Shown one piece after another: positions 17,608-47,328 of a stretch of DNA of 64,000 nucleotides. Position 1 is the stretch's first letter. Each line of letters starts with the position of its first letter. Source of the DNA: JBMFOH01 sp049969715 [NCBI: bacterium] (lineage in GTDB: Bacteria > DUMJ01). The stretch spans positions 56,559 to 120,558 of the forward strand of contig JBMFOH010000002.1 in assembly GCA_049969715.1 (NCBI GenBank), given 5' to 3'. Position numbers and translations under genes: made by a program. The notes beneath the pieces were generated by a model that saw nothing but the letters and a program-made list of their open reading frames with translations, ran no database searches and was not told where the DNA came from.

Positions 17608-18666
17608 TTATTCAGATTTAAATGCTTTATTCCCAAATATAAAGACCAGTATAAAAAATACAATGGTCATTATAAGAGATATATTTAAGACAAAGATAGC
17701 TGAACCAGTCTCTACCCCCGTAGATATCCTTATACTCTGGGCAACATAGGCAAGGGGCAATATGCTTCCAAACCTTCTTAGGTATTCGGGAAGAAACTCT
17801 AAGGGGAAATAGATCCCTGAGAAAAAGATCATTGTTGTCATAAGTACAGAACCTACCTCTGAGGCTACACTTGGTTCACTAAAGATTCCACTTAATAATA
17901 TGCCAAAAGCCATCATCCCAAGAATACTAGTACTTGCACTGACAAGATATAAAAGCCAATTTATACTGAAGTTTACTCTAAATACTAACTGAGAGAATAG
18001 TAGCACTACCGTAGCTGAGGCTAGAGTTACTACAAATCTACCTAATATCATTCCAACAGTGAACAGATATGGCTCTATTGGGGTAACGCTAAATCTCTTA
18101 AGTATTCCCCTTTTTTTATAGTCTCCAAAGAGGGCAATCATAGAAAACATCCCACCATTAAAGATAGAGAGGGCAACTACTCCAGGTATCATATAACCGA
18201 GCTCTGAGGTAGAGACTTTTCCGGGTTCTATAGACGTTAACTTTAGGTCTATAACTTTGTCTATCTTAATATTACTCTTTATAAAACGGTCTGCAATAGT
18301 GTCTCCTAAGGTTCTACTGAAAGGATTCTTTTGCATAGTAGTAAGATTTAGTATGATTTTAATCTTCCCAGCATCGTAGATTGCTCCTGCATCTATCTTG
18401 TCTTCGAGGATTGATTGCCTAATATTCTCTGTACTGTCAAATTTCTTCGCCTCTAGATTTTCTATATTATTTACTACACTATAGAGTCTTTCATCTGATG
18501 AAAGGACCCCTACAAGAAATTTATTATCCCCTGAAGAGCTCCCACCAAATACAAATCCAAATATAATAACAAAGGTAAGAGGAAATATCAGAGTAAAGAA
18601 GAATGTCATCTTATCTCTATAGAAGACCTTTAATGTAGAAAGAAAAAGGCTAAAAACAACTCTCAT
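17608..18666 (-). CDS. ABC-2 type transporter permease
   Basis: This 352-residue membrane protein has the ABC-2 architecture: one N-terminal transmembrane helix (about 20-40), a large extracytoplasmic region (about 50-170), then five helices ending near the C-terminus. The helix 4-5 region contains the conserved amphipathic stretch typical of NatB/YhaP-like permeases. It begins immediately after the stop codon of a second, related permease, and with the ATPase gene upstream they form a three-gene exporter. Export of sodium, peptides or a lipid-linked compound are all possible; the substrate is unknown. Confidence 0.87.
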   Translation of the reverse strand: MRVVFSLFLSTLKVFYRDKMTFFFTLIFPLTFVIIFGFVFGGSSSGDNKFLVGVLSSDERLYSVVNNIENLEAKKFDSTENIRQSILEDKIDAGAIYDAGKIKIILNLTTMQKNPFSRTLGDTIADRFIKSNIKIDKVIDLKLTSIEPGKVSTSELGYMIPGVVALSIFNGGMFSMIALFGDYKKRGILKRFSVTPIEPYLFTVGMILGRFVVTLASATVVLLFSQLVFRVNFSINWLLYLVSASTSILGMMAFGILLSGIFSEPSVASEVGSVLMTTMIFFSGIYFPLEFLPEYLRRFGSILPLAYVAQSIRISTGVETGSAIFVLNISLIMTIVFFILVFIFGNKAFKSE

Positions 18667-19833
18667 CTAAAGCTCCTCCTTGTTGAATCTCTTTATAGTA
18701 AAAAGGAAGCAAAATGCAGTCCAGAGTATAGGGACAGTAATAGTTATAATTGGAGAATATGGTGATTTTAGTATCCCTAAAGAATCCCTTATCCCTGAAG
18801 CCAAATAAGTTATAGGATTAATAAGAACAATCCATCTTATAGTCCAAGGGGCATTTATAACGGGAAAATATAATCCTCCTAAGAACTGCATTGGGAAATT
18901 TAATACCTGACTAATGGCATTAGCACTATTAGTGGTCTTTGAAATAGAAGCCAAGAAGAAGCCGAAGGAAGAAAGGCAAACTATTGTAAGGAGAGAGTAA
19001 CCTATAAATGGAGGAGACAAGGGATTAATAGTAGTCTTAAATATAAGCTTTGCCATTAGAGTTACAAGTATTATCTGTAAGATAATAAGATAGATTCTAG
19101 AGATGATATAAGAGATAATAAAATTCGAGCTTGGGAGGGTAGTAACATTTATTCTTCTTATAATTCCCTTCTCTTTTAGCCAAGCCATATCTGTCCCAAT
19201 CCCAAAGAGACCGGTCATAAAGACAACAAATATAACTATACCTGGGTAGATAAAATCTATAAAAGAAAATGTGCCCTTGGTTCCAACGATCTCAGTCTCA
19301 CTTGTTACCTCTTCTATCTTGTGCCCAATCCTTTTAATGAACTCAAGCTCAAGCTTTTGAAATATGTTTTTTACTATAATATATGCTGTTTCAGAAGACG
19401 CCTGATGTCTTAGAGAATATATATTGATACTAGGTGGTGGAGGATTTACTCCCATATTTTTTAACATAAACCAATTTAACATCTGGGCATCGAAACTCTC
19501 AGGTATCTCTACTATAAGATTGGTCTTTTTCGCCTTGAGATTTTCAAGTTCTCTTTTTAGATTCTCTTCTGAATTTTGAACTACTTTAAGTTGAAATACC
19601 TTGTTTTCTCCCTTGCTTACTTCATTAAAGATTCTCTCTATAATCTCTGAAAACATCCCCTTATGTGATATTAGTGTCAGATCAAATGTAACACTCTTAG
19701 TTTCATATAAATGGGGGAATATAATCATCATAATTGCAAGTAATATAACAGGAAAGACTAAGAGCCAGAAAAAACTAGATTTGTCTCTTATGAGAGATTT
19801 AAACAGGTAATCGGCTAATTTTAGTATCTTCAT
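18667..19833 (-). CDS. ABC-2 type transporter permease
   Basis: This 388-residue protein has the same layout as its downstream neighbour: an N-terminal transmembrane helix (about 20-37), an extracytoplasmic domain to about residue 190 and five or six further helices. Two different ABC-2 permeases with one ATPase suggests a heterodimeric membrane domain. Its start overlaps the ATPase stop by one base. The reading frame contains the LRHQASSETAY segment between the membrane portions, typical of ABC-2 exporters such as YhfP/LinH types. Confidence 0.87.
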   Translation of the reverse strand: MKILKLADYLFKSLIRDKSSFFWLLVFPVILLAIMMIIFPHLYETKSVTFDLTLISHKGMFSEIIERIFNEVSKGENKVFQLKVVQNSEENLKRELENLKAKKTNLIVEIPESFDAQMLNWFMLKNMGVNPPPPSINIYSLRHQASSETAYIIVKNIFQKLELEFIKRIGHKIEEVTSETEIVGTKGTFSFIDFIYPGIVIFVVFMTGLFGIGTDMAWLKEKGIIRRINVTTLPSSNFIISYIISRIYLIILQIILVTLMAKLIFKTTINPLSPPFIGYSLLTIVCLSSFGFFLASISKTTNSANAISQVLNFPMQFLGGLYFPVINAPWTIRWIVLINPITYLASGIRDSLGILKSPYSPIITITVPILWTAFCFLFTIKRFNKEEL

Positions 19834-20759
19834 TACTCTTCTCTCAATGTTCTTCCAGTAAGAGATAAAAATACATCTTCTAGATTTGGTTGTCTTATCA
19901 CAACATCTCTTATCTGAAGAAAGTTCTTCTTGGAAAGTCTTAATAGGAGGTCAGTAGTAGCCAAGATATCATTTGTCTTTAATAGAAGTTTTTTATGCTT
20001 CTTATCATATACAGGGTCTAGACCAGAACTATTTAACTCTTCTAGCATTACTGAGTTGGCATCAAGTTCTACCTCTATAAGACTTTCCTTTTCTAGGTCT
20101 CTAATAAGTGTCTGCGGTGTCCCCTCTTTTATTATCTTGCCATGGTCCATTATACAGACCCAGTCAGAGAGGAATTCTGCTTCCTCCATATAATGTGTGG
20201 TAAGGATGATTGTCTTCCCTTTAGCCTTCAAGTTTAATAGAATATCCCAGGTGTTTCTCCTTGCTTGCGGGTCAAGTCCAGTGGTAGGTTCATCTAGAAA
20301 TAGTATCAATGGGTCATTGATCATAGCTAACCCAATCACAAGTCGTTGTTTCTGTCCTCCAGAAAGATTCTTTATATATGTATTAGCCTTATCCTCTAGA
20401 AATAGTATCTTTAAGACATCATCTACACTAAGAGACCTATCAAAGATACTCTTAAACATATCTAGAGTCTCTTTAACAGTAAGATATGGGATAAGATTAG
20501 TCTCTTGAAGAGAAACACCAATATAAGCCTTTTGTTTCTTGCCTATCTTTGATACAGTCTCATCTAGAAAAGTGATCTTACCACTATCAGGTATCCTTAG
20601 TCCTTCTATAATTTCGATAGTAGTAGTCTTACCTGCACCATTAGGACCTAATAATGTGAATATAGAGCCCTGCTTTACCTTAAAACTCACCCCATCAACT
20701 GCTTTTACTTCTCCATAATACTTCTTAAGGTCTTCTACTTCTAGAATAAAATCTCGCAT
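19833..20759 (-). CDS. ABC transporter ATP-binding protein (DrrA/NatA-like)
   Basis: This 308-residue ATPase powers the two permeases downstream. Walker A GPNGAGKTT is at 38-46, the Q-loop at about 85 (SLQETNL), signature LSGGQKQR at about 134-141, Walker B LILFLDEPT at about 154-162 and the H-loop histidine in TTHYMEE. The C-terminal 75 residues form the regulatory extension typical of DrrA/NatA-type exporters. It is preceded by AGGAGG and starts 20 bases after the stop of a prepilin-like gene, so it may be transcribed with the pilin genes. Confidence 0.93.
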   Translation of the reverse strand: MRDFILEVEDLKKYYGEVKAVDGVSFKVKQGSIFTLLGPNGAGKTTTIEIIEGLRIPDSGKITFLDETVSKIGKKQKAYIGVSLQETNLIPYLTVKETLDMFKSIFDRSLSVDDVLKILFLEDKANTYIKNLSGGQKQRLVIGLAMINDPLILFLDEPTTGLDPQARRNTWDILLNLKAKGKTIILTTHYMEEAEFLSDWVCIMDHGKIIKEGTPQTLIRDLEKESLIEVELDANSVMLEELNSSGLDPVYDKKHKKLLLKTNDILATTDLLLRLSKKNFLQIRDVVIRQPNLEDVFLSLTGRTLREE

Positions 20760-20779: not shown

Positions 20780-21727
20780 TTAAAATTGAGGTACGCTTAT
20801 AATAGTACTATTTTCATTTCCAAGCACCTTGCCTGAAAAATAGGCGATTACTACCGTTCTAACTAGTATATCTCTACTTGATCTTGGACCAACTATTGCT
20901 ACTTCAAATCCGTGTGGAAATCCATCTCCTATGTTATCAGAAGTAGCAAATTTAGGGATAGCTATATACCCCATATTATTATACCCTATAGCATAATAGA
21001 CCTTTCCAGTTGGAAGTTGATTTATTCCAAAGTCTTTAGAGGCAAGAGTAACATCCATCTGAATCTGATGATTATTGACAGGAGAGATATTCCCATTCGC
21101 ATTAAGAGAATAAAATTTCACACCCTTCAAATCAACAGCATATCTTATATTCATATTATAAAATGTCTGTACTAGAACTTTCTCTGCATTATTGTCCCTT
21201 ATATTATTTATTGCTATATAATCTACATAGGTCTCTCCAGATTGAGCTTTTAAAAGCACTATCGGATTTATTCTGTTTATCGTAGAGCTTGTATCTTTTG
21301 CTAGAAAATAATATAAAAATCTGTACCTGTCTATTCTATAGACAGTGCCATCTACAGTAACCTCCATAGGAGTTAAATATCTTGCCATAAAAAGTATATT
21401 CCCTACATCAGTTGGATTTGGAGGGAATTTACCTGTCTCATTTATGAGAGGGAGTTTATTTTTGTTTAATAATGCATAGCCAAATGGTAGATTTAAAACT
21501 ATCATATTTTTATAGCTAGAGTTACTGTCGAATACCACTGCCGATTGGACTACATCAGATTTTATATCCTCTATAAGCTTTTGATTTATAAGTTTTATAT
21601 CATTTATTGCAGTCGTAGTAGTTGTAGAAAAGATTATTCCCTCTGAAACTTGATATATTATAGGAATAGCAAGAGAAAATACAGCTAAGCTTACAAGTAA
21701 TTCTATTACAGTAAATCCTGACCTCAT
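20780..21727 (-). CDS. Prepilin-type minor pseudopilin (PilW-like)
   Basis: This 315-residue protein starts with a class III prepilin signal: MRSG followed by FTVIELLVSLAVFSLAIP, with the peptidase cutting after Gly4 and Glu at position +5 of the mature protein. A single hydrophobic helix (about 5-28) is followed by a soluble domain of about 285 residues rich in Asn, Ser and Tyr. Size and position third in the operon resemble PilW-type minor pilins that build the tip of type IV pili or type II secretion pseudopili. Its ATG overlaps the stop of the giant prepilin gene by four bases. Confidence 0.85.
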   Translation of the reverse strand: MRSGFTVIELLVSLAVFSLAIPIIYQVSEGIIFSTTTTTAINDIKLINQKLIEDIKSDVVQSAVVFDSNSSYKNMIVLNLPFGYALLNKNKLPLINETGKFPPNPTDVGNILFMARYLTPMEVTVDGTVYRIDRYRFLYYFLAKDTSSTINRINPIVLLKAQSGETYVDYIAINNIRDNNAEKVLVQTFYNMNIRYAVDLKGVKFYSLNANGNISPVNNHQIQMDVTLASKDFGINQLPTGKVYYAIGYNNMGYIAIPKFATSDNIGDGFPHGFEVAIVGPRSSRDILVRTVVIAYFSGKVLGNENSTIISVPQF

Positions 21728-24700
21728 CTTCTTATAAATACTCTCCTCTGATGAAAGGCATAGTGGTTCTGTATGTCTCTTCTATAAGCCTCAACCATAA
21801 ATATGTAGGTGCCATTTGGGAATTTGTTTGCTGGGGTGTTAAGTATATAAGACGTAGCTTCTATCTTATGAACATCATCTGGTCTTTCTCCAGGAGATGT
21901 AGGTTGGTCATCTTGGACATACCTCCAGGTCTTTCCTCCGTCAGAAGAATACTTTACTGCGTATATAACTACTGGAGGATTATTGTATTGATAGTCAGAG
22001 TAACTCTTTCCATCCCAACGTTTCCACTCTAGAGACCACTGTATTTCAATAGTTTGAGGATTATTAATCTCATCTATCTCTGTGGGAGATGTTATAGTAA
22101 TATATGGGACCTGCTCTATTCTATCTCTATCTAGATTTGAAGGATCCCCTGCATCTAGAAATCCCATAATTGTACTTACAATAGCATACCTGGCTATAAA
22201 GGCTACTCCTGTTTCACCTGCTGGGGATAATCCATTTATCAGGAAGTATCCAGTTTTCGTATCACTGGCAAGGGTTGGGGCGGTTAATTTTAAGAGGGCA
22301 CTAGATCTGTAACTAGAATCGAACGAAGCATTATAGTAGGATTTGTAGAAACTTAAAGTTCCTCTATAAGAACTAAAACTTGAATCATTCCACTGAGGAG
22401 GCATCCACCCTTTTGTTCGTAAATTTACATTCAAAGCAAAGGGACGCCTAGCATCCATAGATTCTGGTAAAACAATATTAAAGGCTTCATTCATTCTCCT
22501 ACCATCCTCAGTAAGTGTTGCTGTATTAGAAGCATTAGGAGGATTTCTATGCTCATGATTAAAGCCCAAGTTAGAATTAGTAGGGTTCGAACTTCCATTT
22601 AATGCGGTAGGAGGACCATATTCACATGTCCTTTTGAATCTATCATAAGGATAATCAGAAGAGTCTATAGTCTTATATTTTTCTCTATAGAAGGTAGGGG
22701 CAGTTAGGTTTCCATTTGTTTTCCAATTATTATACTGACTATCTGGATAGAGTTCCCCAAGCCATACCCTAGAGTACCAGTTAGAGTTTTTGTCTTTTAT
22801 CAGTCTGCAATAAGACTGGTTTGCCCCATCATCTGGTATTATTTCATCTACCTTATTAGTGCCACCTGAGCCTCCCCAAGGAAGACTTGAGATAGGATTA
22901 TCCAGAAGATTATTAATATAGGGATTTGCAGTATCCCCTCCCATCTCTTGTCCAAAGCCAACATAGTAAAAAGAGAAACCTGCAACACTATTAAAGATAC
23001 TACTAGACCTTAAGATGCCATCTCTAAAGATCTGAAAATATCTTGGAATGTCAGAATCAAATGGAGGGTTTGAGCTGTACGGCATACCCCAACCATTACT
23101 GCCAGTAAACCCATAATAGCCTGAGAGATTACTTGTAAACCACTTGTTATATCCGCCATTTGCCTTTACATCTAGATATGGACAGTATCTTGGGTCTCCC
23201 ATAAACTGAAACTTTTCTGTAATAGGTGGCTCTAGTCCTATCCATGTATATGTCCTAGAACGATTTGGGGTATATTGGATTGGGTCAGGGATACTATTTA
23301 CATCTTTATCTCCTATATATGTCTCTATAGTTAGCATCGTAGGACTTATACTACTTAAAGTGCTACCATCCAAGGTTATAATCCATCTAGCGGTATTCTT
23401 GGGGCTATTACCCTTTGTAGTTAAATCCTGCCAAGCAAAAGGGTTAGAAGATGTTCCTACCGGACAGGGAATATATTCAAGACCATAGAGCTTTTTCGTA
23501 CTATATAATCCTGTTTTGCTAGAATTATGATATGGACAGGTTGTTGGTGTATTTTTGAGGAGAATCTTAGTGCCTATTAAGGCGTTATTACTGTCACGAA
23601 GAACACTAACAGAGTAATTAGAGCTATCATCGCTATAGGAATATGGAGTAGTACTATCTCCTATTATCTTTGTCACATTCTTTATAATAGTAGGATCGTC
23701 TATCCCCCTCAATAGAATAGTTATATTCACCTTATCAGGTATAGAATAATTCGGCATAAGATAGGCATAGACCCTTAGATTTACATCTTCCCCTGTATTA
23801 TATTTTAGTTTCTCTGGATGCGTAACTACCCTTACACCAGGGAGACTTTCTGGGTCTTTAGCTGGGTCCGAGTAATTTCTTAGTGGAGGGAATGGTATAA
23901 GCTCACCATGAAGAGTTATTATTATAGAATTTTTATACTTGTCTGGATTTGAGAATAGGTCCTCCATTAACATTCGCCAGCTTGGTTCTAGGTTTGGATT
24001 AGATTGCTTTTCATAGTTATATCTAGCTAATTCATCTGGATATCTCATACTATGATTGAACTGGTCAGCTAAAGCATACGTCCCATCATTAAAAACCCCA
24101 TCGATGTTGAGCTTACCTTTTATAAAGTTTGCATCATAGTAATAAGAGTTAGCCTGCGCATAATTATTTAGTAGCCCAGGATAAATATAAGCCCAGGGGA
24201 TAGAAGATGCCACTGTATTAGCCTTGTTTATATATGGTCTATAATACTCGTCTCTTCCATAAGAGAGCCTTGTTATCCAGTGGGCTCTTATTGTAAGATT
24301 AGGATTTCTTGATTCCATCTCGCTTATAGCACTATCTATCATCATCCTAAGATTTGTAGTATTAACCCACCATCCGGGGACATTTTCAATAGCTATTAGA
24401 TATACATCATATACCTGTTGGGGGATATCTGGAGAACCAATAGTAGAGATTATAGAGCTTATATTTGATAATCTTTTATACTCATTCCCTACCCTTTTGA
24501 ATATTTCTACTATTACATATCTTACATCACGGCTCTCTATATTGGGTAACTTTTTTATAGTTATTCTCCTATAAAACTTCCAACTTCCATCACTTAACTT
24601 GCTATTACCGCTTAAGACATAATCTGGGGTAGCATCCTTTGCTGTAGTCAAAACTGGATTATAGCTCGTTCCATCGTCAAAATTATCTAGGTATTCTGCT

Positions 24701-24897
24701 CTTTTTTCTTCACCCTTTCTTATATAACTTTTAAGCTCCTCTATCAGCTGGTTTGCCTTGATATTGGCAAAGGCAATGTCCTGATTACTGGATGTATAAT
24801 TAAATGTCATAGCAATATAGTTAGCTATAACAGCAAAGACTATACCAAGGACAAATAGGCTTATTATTACCTCTATAAGAGTGAACCCTCTCTTCAT
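21724..24897 (-). CDS. Giant prepilin-like protein with large extracellular domain
   Basis: This 1057-residue protein begins MKRG then FTLIEVIISLFVLGI, a perfect class III prepilin signal (cut after Gly4, Glu+5). After the hydrophobic helix (about 5-30) comes a predicted extracellular region of about 1000 residues, very rich in Asn, Ser, Tyr and Pro with only five cysteines. Residues about 955-1057 look like a fibronectin/Ig-type fold (VPYITITSPTE, YSSDGGKTWRYV). Ordinary minor pilins have 130-250 residues, so this is a modular pilin, perhaps with an adhesive or enzymatic tip. It overlaps both neighbours by four bases. The middle 800 residues match nothing I recognise. Confidence 0.8.
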   Translation of the reverse strand: MKRGFTLIEVIISLFVLGIVFAVIANYIAMTFNYTSSNQDIAFANIKANQLIEELKSYIRKGEEKRAEYLDNFDDGTSYNPVLTTAKDATPDYVLSGNSKLSDGSWKFYRRITIKKLPNIESRDVRYVIVEIFKRVGNEYKRLSNISSIISTIGSPDIPQQVYDVYLIAIENVPGWWVNTTNLRMMIDSAISEMESRNPNLTIRAHWITRLSYGRDEYYRPYINKANTVASSIPWAYIYPGLLNNYAQANSYYYDANFIKGKLNIDGVFNDGTYALADQFNHSMRYPDELARYNYEKQSNPNLEPSWRMLMEDLFSNPDKYKNSIIITLHGELIPFPPLRNYSDPAKDPESLPGVRVVTHPEKLKYNTGEDVNLRVYAYLMPNYSIPDKVNITILLRGIDDPTIIKNVTKIIGDSTTPYSYSDDSSNYSVSVLRDSNNALIGTKILLKNTPTTCPYHNSSKTGLYSTKKLYGLEYIPCPVGTSSNPFAWQDLTTKGNSPKNTARWIITLDGSTLSSISPTMLTIETYIGDKDVNSIPDPIQYTPNRSRTYTWIGLEPPITEKFQFMGDPRYCPYLDVKANGGYNKWFTSNLSGYYGFTGSNGWGMPYSSNPPFDSDIPRYFQIFRDGILRSSSIFNSVAGFSFYYVGFGQEMGGDTANPYINNLLDNPISSLPWGGSGGTNKVDEIIPDDGANQSYCRLIKDKNSNWYSRVWLGELYPDSQYNNWKTNGNLTAPTFYREKYKTIDSSDYPYDRFKRTCEYGPPTALNGSSNPTNSNLGFNHEHRNPPNASNTATLTEDGRRMNEAFNIVLPESMDARRPFALNVNLRTKGWMPPQWNDSSFSSYRGTLSFYKSYYNASFDSSYRSSALLKLTAPTLASDTKTGYFLINGLSPAGETGVAFIARYAIVSTIMGFLDAGDPSNLDRDRIEQVPYITITSPTEIDEINNPQTIEIQWSLEWKRWDGKSYSDYQYNNPPVVIYAVKYSSDGGKTWRYVQDDQPTSPGERPDDVHKIEATSYILNTPANKFPNGTYIFMVEAYRRDIQNHYAFHQRRVFIRR

Positions 24898-25976
24898 TGT
24901 CTTGCCTCTCTTATAAGAGGGGTAGACCTCCTGTAGAGTCCAACCCTCCGTTTCATCATATCTATAATGTTTTTATCATAATCTATCTCTGAGACCTCTC
25001 CTGTCCCTTCTATATTTAACTCTGAGCCAGTAACTACTATACAACCAGAGATAAGAGAAGGAGCCTGCTGATGATAGTTACTACTAGCATTTCCAGATAC
25101 ATATATTATTCCAGTAAAATTGCTATTACTTCCTGCCTGAATATTTAGATTCCCATTAACTATAAGAATACCTCCTCCGTTTAGAGGTCTAGTCATTGAA
25201 AACTGAGCATTTCCATTTATGTATATAAGAGCCGAGGTAGGTAGTTTCTCTGGCAACTCCTCTACTCTTGAGACACTTATATCTGCAAGATTACTCAATT
25301 CATCTAGAGAGAGTCCAAAGATAGACAGGGAATTAAGAGACATATGTTGATTCTCTGATATGGTGCCCTGAATATCTCCTATCTTTGTAACTTTACCATT
25401 AGTAGCTACTCCACCACGGACCCTTCCCCCACTATCTACCTTTACATTTTTATCAGCTAAAATTGCAGACTCGACAGGTAGATTTACACCTATCCTTCTT
25501 ATCTCTGTAGAGATTTTACTCTGTCCTAGTATTCTATTAGGAGACTGATTAAACTTCTTATTTGGGTCCAGTTTTTGAAAGACATAACCATAACTTATAA
25601 GCTTCCATATACTTCCTTGTTGTTGAAACCCTCTTTTAAAAGATACGTCTTCTACTTCACTCTTAGGGACTTCATATCTACCATACACATTTCCAGAAAT
25701 CTGATACTCTCTTACAAGACCTATAGTAGAATCCTCGGTATCAGTCCCTTGAGGAGAAAATACTAGTACGGGTTGAGAGAGCTGTCTTTTAAACCAAGAT
25801 ATAGCATCTTCGATACCTGCATTGGCAACCTCGTCTGCTTTCGAGTTTACATCGAAGTTCACCTTTAAACTTCTTTGAATATTTAAAACCAAAGCCATCC
25901 CTACTGCAATGAAGGCAGAAAGTACTAAGATTATAACTATTACAAATAATAAGATAAAACCCTCTTTCTTTCTCAT
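24894..25976 (-). CDS. PilX-like minor pilin with beta-helical C-terminal domain
   Basis: This 360-residue protein has a PilX-type N-terminus: a short basic start, then a hydrophobic helix (about 7-30, FILLFVIVIILVLSAFIAVG), followed by a helical SLKVNFDVNSKADEVANAGIEDAI segment that in PilX/PulK-like proteins packs in the pilus core. The usual Glu+5 is not obvious, which suggests PulK/GspK-like tip placement. Residues about 180-330 are repetitive (ILIVNGNLNIQ, GIIYVSGNASS) like bactofilin or polymer-forming beta-helices. It is the first gene of the prepilin cassette and carries its own promoter just upstream. Confidence 0.8.
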   Translation of the reverse strand: MRKKEGFILLFVIVIILVLSAFIAVGMALVLNIQRSLKVNFDVNSKADEVANAGIEDAISWFKRQLSQPVLVFSPQGTDTEDSTIGLVREYQISGNVYGRYEVPKSEVEDVSFKRGFQQQGSIWKLISYGYVFQKLDPNKKFNQSPNRILGQSKISTEIRRIGVNLPVESAILADKNVKVDSGGRVRGGVATNGKVTKIGDIQGTISENQHMSLNSLSIFGLSLDELSNLADISVSRVEELPEKLPTSALIYINGNAQFSMTRPLNGGGILIVNGNLNIQAGSNSNFTGIIYVSGNASSNYHQQAPSLISGCIVVTGSELNIEGTGEVSEIDYDKNIIDMMKRRVGLYRRSTPLIREARQ

Positions 25977-45273: not shown

Positions 45274-47328
45274 CTAGATCAGTCCTAGGATCTCTCTTGA
45301 ATACAACTCTCTGACATCTAGTATTAGATATACCTCCGTAGCATATAAGATCTTTTTTCTTATAAGATTAGAAATCTCTCTAGCCATATCTACATCTGTA
45401 ATCCGAGACTTTGCTTCTTGAAGAGAAAGCCCATAACATTCTAGATTTTGAATAAGATCTTTAAAGGTATTCTCATAGGTCCCAAGATTAACCCTCTCTA
45501 AGTTTACCTTCTCTATAGCCCTATCCAACCTCTCAAGTAGATAGTTGCTATCATATAGGTCTATACCAGTTAGGCCTATAGAACGAAGGGTTACATCTGG
45601 AAGAGAAATATCTACTCTCTCTTCTCCTATAAGTAACGGAAGGTATCCAGAAATAACAGAAATTTTTATATTTGCTAGAGACTCTAACGCCTCTTTGGCA
45701 AAAGTAAAGTTAAGCCCTAATAGGTTAAACTCTCTGGAAGGAGAACTGTATATATCTCCGTTTATAGAGACAGTAATATCCTCTGGTAGCTCTAGAATAG
45801 GGTATCCTGATGGATAGATATTCTTTTCAACTGAAAAACAGTCAGTTCCTGTTTGTAAGATTCCAATTATCTTTGATACTCTATAAGACTGATCCAATTT
45901 GATAATTCCTCCATCATAAGATGCAATGATATCTAATCTCGAGTTATTTATGTCATCTATCACATCTTGAATGGAAGAAGTCTTAGTGAAATTTAAAGTG
46001 GCTAATGGACCATACTGATCTAGAAATGTTAAAGAAAGTCCATCCTCTAGATCTAATATATTACCTAACAATGTTTCTTGTGTAGCGTCTACAGTCAGAT
46101 ATGTCTCCTGATGAATCCCTCCAGTAATAGAGAGTTCTAACCTCTGATCTCCGCTAGGATAATCAAATCTAAAGGTATCTGTTGAATTTCCATCAAAAAC
46201 AACATTTACATTTAATCCTAAGTTAGTCTTTAACTGACTTTTTATATAGAAAGCGGTATAATCTAATGTATAAGAGGTGGGAATATTTAGGGTAAGAATA
46301 GCTCCCCCAAACCCCTTGAACTGAAATGCTAATGGGTTTGATGTTTTAAAATAGTCTCTTATTAATGTCCCCCCAGTTACCAAAGGACCACTTATAGCAC
46401 CAGCTATAGATGTCAATCGTCTATAGGAGAATGGACCATTTGAGCCTTCCAGCGCTGAAATCTCAATAGTATCTCCGAAGTTTATAGCCTCATCTATGGA
46501 GTTTGTTTCTTTAATGTTTATATTATATTTAGTCCCTGGCTCGGTAGAACTCAATATTATATACTTATTCCCCTCGTCAAAGGAAGCAGTAATAGGTATC
46601 CCATTAGAGAAAAAAGCATTATTTAACTTTTCTACTGCAGAACCAACCGTATCTCCCCCATAAGGATTAACATCGAATATTATACTTACGTTATACACCC
46701 CATCGTTTATATTAAGTGTCTTATAGTAAGATGAAACAGATGACTCTCCAAGAGCATCATATAGACTACTAGAGAGAGAAATTTCTCCTGGAAACCTAAA
46801 AGGCAAGGCTATCTTCTCTTCTTTTCCTCCAGATATTATAGAGATATTATAGGTCCCTGACTCTATATTGTCTAACTTGATATCCTCTAAATACCTATTA
46901 CCTTCTAATAGAAGAAGGGTTTTCTCTAGAGACCCGTCAATAAGATTTTTATTATTATACTTAGTAGAGTGAGCAATATTATCTATCTGAGAAAGAAGCT
47001 GATTTATTTCATATAGGCATTTCTCTCTATCCAAGTCTGTAAGAGTGTCACTTCCAGATCTTACTACAAGAGTTCTTATCTTTTCTAATATCATACTGAC
47101 TTTAGCCAAAGCATCCTCTGCTGTCCTGACGATAGAGATGCCAGTATTGATATTGTGTATACTTATTATATTCTTACGTATCTGCAAACTAAGTCTAGAA
47201 GAGACGCCAAGACCCACAGGGTCATCTGAAGACCCATTGATTCTCAATCCAGATGATATCTTCCTTATAGAATCACTAATCTCTCTTTCCCTTACACTTA
47301 AGAAGTGCAAAAGAGGAGAAATACGCAT
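45274..47328 (-). CDS. fliC: Large divergent flagellin
   Basis: This 684-residue protein has the conserved flagellin ends. Its N-terminal D0/D1 region (about 1-135) contains KISSGLRINGSSDDPVG, VRTAEDAL and NIAHSTKYNNKNLIDG; its C-terminal about 70 residues contain EAKSRITDVDMAREISNLIRKK. The centre (about 140-610) has three flagellin-IN-like modules. The extreme C-terminus (YATEVYLILDVRELYSREILGL) departs from the usual AMLAQAN-type helix. It begins two bases after the purH stop with no own promoter or sigma-28 box visible, so it seems to be the last gene of the pur operon. No other flagellar gene is in the window. Confidence 0.85.
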   Translation of the reverse strand: MRISPLLHFLSVREREISDSIRKISSGLRINGSSDDPVGLGVSSRLSLQIRKNIISIHNINTGISIVRTAEDALAKVSMILEKIRTLVVRSGSDTLTDLDREKCLYEINQLLSQIDNIAHSTKYNNKNLIDGSLEKTLLLLEGNRYLEDIKLDNIESGTYNISIISGGKEEKIALPFRFPGEISLSSSLYDALGESSVSSYYKTLNINDGVYNVSIIFDVNPYGGDTVGSAVEKLNNAFFSNGIPITASFDEGNKYIILSSTEPGTKYNINIKETNSIDEAINFGDTIEISALEGSNGPFSYRRLTSIAGAISGPLVTGGTLIRDYFKTSNPLAFQFKGFGGAILTLNIPTSYTLDYTAFYIKSQLKTNLGLNVNVVFDGNSTDTFRFDYPSGDQRLELSITGGIHQETYLTVDATQETLLGNILDLEDGLSLTFLDQYGPLATLNFTKTSSIQDVIDDINNSRLDIIASYDGGIIKLDQSYRVSKIIGILQTGTDCFSVEKNIYPSGYPILELPEDITVSINGDIYSSPSREFNLLGLNFTFAKEALESLANIKISVISGYLPLLIGEERVDISLPDVTLRSIGLTGIDLYDSNYLLERLDRAIEKVNLERVNLGTYENTFKDLIQNLECYGLSLQEAKSRITDVDMAREISNLIRKKILYATEVYLILDVRELYSREILGLI

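What the first reader, a model, noticed from the sequence alone, without database searches (positions are those of the whole stretch)
20780..25976. Cassette with a 1057-residue prepilin-like protein between two tip-type pilins
Three overlapping genes encode a PilX/PulK-like protein with a beta-helical C-terminus, a giant protein with a perfect class III prepilin signal and a PilW-like protein. Ordinary minor pilins have 130-250 residues; here one carries about 1000 extracellular residues with a Fn3-like end and an Asn/Ser/Tyr/Pro-rich body. It may be a pilus tip machine for adhesion, DNA uptake or polysaccharide contact. No pilus ATPase or platform gene is close by, so it is a satellite operon. 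This is the best candidate for something undescribed in the window.
Basis: partly seen in the sequence, partly recalled or inferred. Interest (0 to 1): 0.62.

Follow-up and report, generated by a model that had tools for sequence, protein, structure and literature searches.

The report
Giant modular pilin in tip-pilin cassette
A conserved three-gene set found across several distantly related bacterial lineages appears to put an undescribed protein head of about 900 residues on the tip of a type IV pilus, probably to grip or act on something outside the cell.

Summary
Three overlapping minus-strand genes encode a PilX/GspK-like prepilin (360 aa), a 1057-aa prepilin and a PulJ/PilW-like prepilin (315 aa). 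The large ORF is neither low complexity nor a chance fusion: it is 81-85% identical in three related genomes and under purifying selection (dN/dS about 0.08-0.11). Full-length relatives (1039-1536 aa, 31-41% identical) occur in five further groups, probably phyla, making six with the window's own. The order K-giant-J is kept: K directly upstream in 20 of 21 cassettes, J directly downstream in all 19 where I identified it by profile or alignment. The giants carry the class III site with Glu5 (17 of 17 aligned); the K proteins lack Glu5 (8 of 8 aligned), the published mark of a tip-capping subunit. Three standalone pilins matching only about residues 5-158 delimit a pilin module; the ~900-residue rest matches no known family or structure over a cut-off. 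The closest relatives encode two pilus-type ATPases elsewhere. Best reading: a modular minor pilin showing an undescribed, slowly evolving head at the tip of an ordinary type IVa pilus. Ligand or catalysis is unknown; both structure predictions failed (pLDDT 34 and 41). New variant of a known kind.

The parts
24894..25976 (-). K: PilX/GspK-like prepilin, 360 aa, no Glu5, with a long, possibly beta-helical head
   Evidence: cleavage site read as MRKKEG|FILLF; homologue directly upstream of the giant in 20 of 21 cassettes; no pilin family match
21724..24897 (-). Giant modular prepilin, 1057 aa (mature about 120 kDa)
24430..24897 (-). Giant residues 1-156: class III signal MKRG|FTLIE and pilin module
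   Evidence: N_methyl/TIGR02532 over cut-off; three standalone pilins matching only this part
23863..24429 (-). Giant residues 157-345: most constrained part of the head (predicted strand-helix-strand pattern; GRD, HGEL, RNYSDxAK motifs)
   Evidence: dN/dS 0.034; invariant residues; secondary structure only from low-confidence models
23518..23862 (-). Giant residues 346-460: strand-rich region, fastest-evolving part; in two distant relatives (G006, G208) large insertions follow at 459-461
22123..23517 (-). Giant residues 461-925: body with KNTARW, GDPRxxPYxDxK and WLGExYPD motifs
21727..22122 (-). Giant residues 926-1057: C-terminal strand-rich domain with Asp-box-like motif
   Evidence: sub-threshold or local only
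20780..21727 (-). J: PulJ/PilW-like prepilin, 315 aa, Glu5 present
   Evidence: homologue next downstream in 19 of 19 cassettes where it was identified by profile or alignment

Best explanation
The three genes encode a tip complex of minor pilins. After prepilin peptidase cuts all three, the K-like protein (no Glu5) caps the complex, and the giant and the J-like protein pack beneath it through their N-terminal helices. The cell's ordinary type IVa pilus machine, encoded elsewhere, then builds the pilus from this complex. The giant is a modular pilin: a pilin module of about 156 residues carries an undescribed head of about 900 residues (103 kDa) out of the cell on the tip. The head is the effector, most likely a binding head for a surface or polymer. 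Shown here: gene order, signals, conservation, module boundary, pilus-type ATPases elsewhere in close relatives. Inferred: that the window's own genome has the same machine, assembly at the tip, interaction of the three proteins, and the binding role.
For: K-giant-J order: K directly upstream in 20 of 21 cassettes, J next downstream in 19 of 19 where identified by profile or alignment. K lacks Glu5 in 8 of 8 aligned; giants have G-1 and Glu5 in 17 of 17 aligned; J has Glu5 in 7 of 8 aligned, the eighth ORF being called from inside the signal. The review PMC10191384 (passages) says tip complexes are capped by a subunit lacking Glu5 and that filaments grow from tip to base. Three standalone pilins match only about residues 5-158. 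The cassette stays whole although its flanks in the window differ from those that L002 and L003 share. Purifying selection, strongest at residues 157-345 (dN/dS 0.034). G001-G003 hold exactly two T2SSE-family matches each at E <= 1e-20, adjacent, in frames of about 560 and 363-373 aa, read as PilB and PilT, and genes read by eye as pilM to pilQ with three small pilins.
Against: No experiment, and no confident structure (pLDDT 33.8 and 40.8). Profile comparison with E. coli GspG/H/I/J/K sees essentially the N-terminal region only and cannot assign the giant to I or J (its best score is to GspG); K matches GspK best but with a probability of only 4.9%, and no pilin family model. Pfam N_methyl is below its cut-off, or not listed, in several distant giants, where the signal was read by eye and script. 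No H-type gene is in the cassette. One relative (G001) lacks K and the giant's first residues, by deletion or misassembly. The distance correlation of K, giant and J (r 0.94-0.98, 15 cassettes) would also arise from plain vertical descent.
Confidence: 0.7

Rival explanations
1. The head is an enzyme carried on the pilus tip (for example acting on a polysaccharide or cell wall), not a passive adhesin.
For: The giant is the most conserved of the three proteins (31-41% to members outside its group, against 25-34% for K and 22-27% for J), unusual for an adhesin (recalled). Of 89 columns invariant in 17 sequences, 79 lie in the head, many of them polar (GRD 214-216, Y342-S343-D344, A346-K347, D568, D576, E715). 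Residues 157-345 have dN/dS 0.034. The C-terminal 138 residues match anhydrosialidase chains at E 0.004, over 966-998 (the Asp-box) only.
Against: No match to a catalytic family. The Asp-box match covers 33 residues of a beta-turn motif, not an active site. H330 of the HGEL motif is Asn in one member.
Confidence: 0.22
2. The trio is a pseudopilus or extracellular export device (type II secretion-like), with the giant working inside the periplasm.
For: Pseudopilin families also match the N-terminus weakly (gspG, gspH, gspI); a K with I and J partners is shared with type II secretion. The other groups hold 4 to 16 T2SSE matches per genome, so a type II system is not excluded there.
Against: The closest relatives have just two T2SSE-family ATPases, one directly followed by a PilT-sized one, and a pilM-to-Q-like operon (by eye); no second set in those three.
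Confidence: 0.12
3. The head is a structural cap needed to start pilus assembly, a stand-in for the non-pilin PilC/PilY1.
For: PilY1 (PF05567) was found in 0 of 16 giant-bearing genomes, while the same model rings in 57 of 385 surveyed genomes, 38 of them over its cut-off.
Against: At those background rates zero of 16 arises by chance about 8% or 19% of the time, and the genomes are not independent. The 14 named control genomes rang in neither search. Most of the 385 genomes have neither PilY1 nor the giant (9 had the giant).
Confidence: 0.15

Closest known systems
Modular pilins (Streptococcus sanguinis PilB and PilC; PMC8179133, PMC9934059, passages read)
   Same: A pilin module with class III signal carries a large extra module thought to be shown at the tip; minor pilins form a tip complex that presents effectors.
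   Different: The head is about 900 residues and matches no named domain. The paper's named extreme, an 860-residue protein with 12 repeats, is an extreme in number of domains; it gives no size maximum in the passages I saw. Here a K-giant-J cassette is kept across about six phylum-level groups.
HIJK / GspH-GspI-GspJ-GspK tip complex (PMC10191384, passages read)
   Same: A K-like subunit without Glu5 and two partners with Glu5, encoded together.
   Different: No H gene in the cassette; the middle protein is about eight times the size of E. coli GspI (125 aa); I or J identity not resolved.
PilC/PilY1 tip adhesin (PF05567)
   Same: Role proposed: a large effector on the pilus tip.
   Different: PilY1 is not a pilin (PMC10191384, passage); no PF05567 match in the giants scanned.
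Verru_Chthon cassette protein A (TIGR02600, 1296 positions)
   Same: Another long protein in a multi-gene pilin-like cassette (cassette description recalled).
   Different: TIGR02600 did not ring at any giant locus in 8 giant-bearing genomes; in 4 of them it rang only on the N-termini of other frames of 348-398 aa, below cut-off.
Pih pilus of Pelobacter carbinolicus (PMC3543383, passages read)
   Same: Described as having three minor pilins much larger than usual that keep the PilD motif.
   Different: Homology with the present trio was not tested.

Membership tests
Modular type IV pilin | Class III signal peptide with Gly-1 and Glu5 | tested here: met
   17 of 17 aligned giants; N_methyl over cut-off in the window protein, below it in several distant ones
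Modular type IV pilin | Separable pilin module plus extra module | tested here: met
   Three standalone pilins (ORFs of 180 and 196 aa; the third in a 234-aa open frame) cover only about residues 5-158 of the profile; by sequence, not by structure
Modular type IV pilin | Pilin fold of residues 1-156 | tested here: inconclusive
   Structure prediction failed, pLDDT 33.8
Modular type IV pilin | Incorporation into a pilus | not testable with these tools
   Needs labelling or pilus preparation
HIJK-type tip complex | K subunit without Glu5 | tested here: met
   8 of 8 aligned K proteins, of 20 found
HIJK-type tip complex | Giant is the I subunit | tested here: inconclusive
   PilV model matches 6 of 9 members, window E 2.8e-5 and 24.6 bits against a cut-off of 52.2; hhalign cannot separate G, H, I and J
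HIJK-type tip complex | H subunit encoded with the others | tested here: not met
   No fourth pilin beside K, giant and J in the stretches read; small pilins lie beside pilM-like genes in the relatives
PilC/PilY1 | PF05567 beta-propeller domain | tested here: not met
   No match in the window giant or in the 17 members of A6
Verru_Chthon cassette A | Match to TIGR02600 | tested here: not met
   No match at the giant loci in 8 genomes
Type II secretion pseudopilus | Separate T2SS ATPase in the genome | tested here: not met
   Two T2SSE matches in each of G001-G003, adjacent and read as PilB and PilT; the other 13 genomes have 4 to 16 and were not resolved

The most novel reading that the evidence does not exclude
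A previously undescribed class of type IV pilus whose tip carries a 100-kDa enzyme head as part of a pilin, kept as a K-giant-J cassette across several bacterial phyla, so that the pilus delivers catalysis and not only adhesion to distant surfaces.
Probability: 0.18. Interest if true: 0.75.

Novelty: new variant of a known kind. Interest (0 to 1): 0.52.

Why it matters
Modular pilins are thought to be undercounted because many extra modules match no database signature (PMC8179133, passage). This is such a case: a head of about 900 residues with 79 invariant positions in 17 sequences and a fixed gene order, shared by about six groups of bacteria. A profile of it would find and name the family, and its structure would say whether pilus tips can carry an enzyme. 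It also gives a natural test of the tip-complex model, since the effector is built into a pilin.

Tried and rejected
Low complexity, frameshift fusion or chance ORF: rejected. Known domain in the body: Pfam, NCBIfam and PDB sequence searches gave the N-terminal signal; CBM_35 in one member (G006, E 0.0037, below cut-off, inside its insertion); Rhv_5 in one (G316, E 4.6e-5, below cut-off, taken as implausible); PKD_6 in one (E 0.0027, member not identified); weak Asp-box and Big_7 hits; and an Asp-box match to anhydrosialidase chains at E 0.004. Relatives in viral contigs: 46 stretches matched a pattern, none encoded a relative. Structure: whole protein and residues 155-460 were predicted from 4 sequences; both models are too poor to search, so no fold search was run. 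While looking at the alignment I read a caspase-like hydrophobic-HG pattern into HGEL and dropped it: one member has Asn for the His and no Cys is invariant. PilY1 replacement: the first search was uninformative because its controls did not ring; repeated on 385 genomes as a positive control; the absence is not significant. Promoter-like sites (36 against 34.9 expected) and terminator-like sites (5 against 6.3) were at chance level. Literature: searches for modular, giant or large pilins and for tip minor pilins, for Verru_Chthon (none held) and for a strain name (an unrelated paper). No description of this family was seen in those listings or in the passages read of PMC8179133, PMC10191384, PMC9934059 and PMC3543383; a word search in PMC13190605 gave no passage. 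Only openly licensed PMC papers are held.

Rows set aside: 8 of 15 matching genomes hit only the pilin N-terminus and are not counted as relatives. G312 (giant split over two contigs), G313 (566 aa) and G354 (291 aa, no J next to it) are partial and are left out of the 21 cassettes, but are counted in the tallies. G001 is counted among the 21 although its giant lacks residues 1-16. In G320 and G322 the K gene lies in two frames; in G319 K and in G338 J is cut by the contig end. The second copy in G291 has no J reading because the fetched stretch ends there; J in G001 is seen only as an N_methyl hit at the contig end and is not counted in the 19. Alignment A6 holds 17 of the 21 giants (not G001, G319, or the two of G291).
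Full report
Check. The large one passes the Pfam N_methyl and NCBIfam prepilin cut-offs; the J-like one passes only the NCBIfam one; the K-like one matches no pilin family and is named by eye. The body of the giant holds no tandem repeat and its Asn/Ser/Tyr/Pro bias is real but mild.

Relatives. One scan of genome contigs found three loci, 81-85% identical in alignment. Their genomes are the only three that the search returned for their phylum. A survey of 290 relatives of G003 found the body of the protein in 7 genomes; 8 more matched only the pilin N-terminus. Searches of the phyla of the hits found it, whole or in part, in 2 of 4, 10 of 45, 2 of 5 and 3 of 17 genomes. A second survey of 385 genomes found it in 9, one of them (G418) outside all those lists. 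That makes six groups, taken as phyla on the assumption that the lists show every genome held. Full-length members have 1039-1536 residues and, outside the window's group, 31-41% identity to the window protein (12 compared). Every match to the body also carried pilin sequence, except a gene piece at a contig edge in G312; G001 lacks the first 16 residues.

The cassette. I count 21 cassettes with a full-length or nearly full-length giant: window, G001-G003, G241, G338, G006, G352, G208, G315, G316, G318-G322, two each in G100 and G291, and G418. A K homologue lies directly upstream in 20; the exception is G001, where K and the first residues of the giant are missing and the start of the gene that precedes K in L002 and L003 is joined to the giant (by eye), a deletion or a misassembly. 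A J homologue is the next gene downstream in all 19 where I identified it by profile or alignment. L002 and L003 share flanks; the window's flanks differ from theirs, but the cassette is kept. In the window an ABC-2 export operon starts 20 bases after J; it does not follow J in L002 or L003.

Signals. All 17 giants in A6 have Gly at -1 and Glu at +5. None of 8 aligned K proteins has Glu at +5. Seven of 8 aligned J proteins do; the eighth ORF was called from inside the signal. In several distant giants the Pfam signal model stays below its cut-off or is not listed. [quoted passage not shown] This is the main ground for reading the trio as a tip complex. Sequence comparison cannot say whether the giant is the I or the J subunit: with the first 28-30 residues removed no signal is left, and the PilV and GspI models match weakly. 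K matches GspK better than the other four but with a probability of only 4.9%.

Module boundary. G318, G319 and G320, which carry a giant, also hold standalone pilins (ORFs of 180 and 196 aa in G320 and G319; a 234-aa open frame in G318) that match only about residues 5-158 of the profile. So a pilin module of about 156 residues and a head of about 900 residues (103 kDa) can be told apart. G006 and G208 have large insertions at 459-461; the one in G006 holds a CBM_35 match below cut-off (E 0.0037).

Selection. dN/dS between window, L002 and L003 is 0.08-0.11 for the giant, 0.11 for K and 0.13-0.21 for J. Within the giant (window against L003) it is lowest at residues 157-345 (0.034) and highest at 346-455 (0.154); synonymous sites are near saturation, so the ratios are rough. 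The giant is also the most conserved of the three across groups. That points to a conserved partner or activity and away from a fast-evolving adhesin.

Machine. In G001-G003 there are two T2SSE-family matches at E <= 1e-20, adjacent and of PilB and PilT size, followed in the two loci read (G002, G003) by a 405-aa protein that I read as PilC (PilC by eye, not by a domain search). A pilM-to-Q-like operon with three small pilins lies elsewhere (names by eye; one small pilin matches ComGF). The cassette is thus a satellite of what looks like a single type IVa pilus in these relatives; the window's own genome is not held. The other 13 giant-bearing genomes tested have 4 to 16 such matches. PilY1 was found in 0 of 16 giant-bearing genomes, while the model rings in 57 of 385 surveyed genomes; this is not significant.

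Function. No family or structure search named the head over a cut-off. The nearest to a lead is an Asp-box match of residues 966-998 to anhydrosialidase chains at E 0.004. Two AlphaFold2 runs on four close sequences gave pLDDT 33.8 and 40.8, so no fold search was made. My commitment is a tip-displayed binding head, with an enzyme as the chief rival.

Known or new. Modular pilins are known, with 264 architectures found by database domains (PMC8179133, passages), and the same authors expect undercounting. The present family has an unnamed head of unusual size and comes in a fixed three-gene order across about six groups. I found no description of it in the searches listed under Tried and rejected. 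New variant of a known kind.

Noticed in passing
L038:10724-12247 and L084:3807-5318: In two genomes of one group the K prepilin is fused behind an HTH_17 domain (E 2.1e-11 in the one member scanned), giving a leader of about 120 residues. dN/dS is about 0.05 in the HTH, 0.3 in the linker and 0.05 in the pilin start, so the fusion looks real: a DNA-binding domain that prepilin peptidase would set free if it cuts at the usual site.
   Followed up: partly
L071:11469-17001, L072:10829-16001, L073:1-5195, L075:1-4306, L077:1-4630: Very large secreted-looking proteins lie next downstream of J in five genomes of the G208 group; the two scanned carry fibronectin type III domains. They may be partners of the tip complex.
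   Followed up: partly
window 17608-20759 (-): ABC-2 exporter operon (ATPase and two permeases) starts 20 bases after J, probably by chance since it is not beside J in L002 or L003.
   Followed up: partly
L001:7960-8020: In MAG-58 the start of the gene that precedes K in L003 is joined to about residue 17 of the giant: deletion or misassembly.
   Followed up: partly
window 45274-47328 (-): A 684-aa flagellin with a long middle region, alone among housekeeping genes.
   Followed up: no
G312 (L079, L080), G313 (L078), G354 (L112): Shortened or split giants (583, 566 and 291 aa) whose match stops within or just after the first part of the head; broken assemblies or natural short forms.
   Followed up: partly
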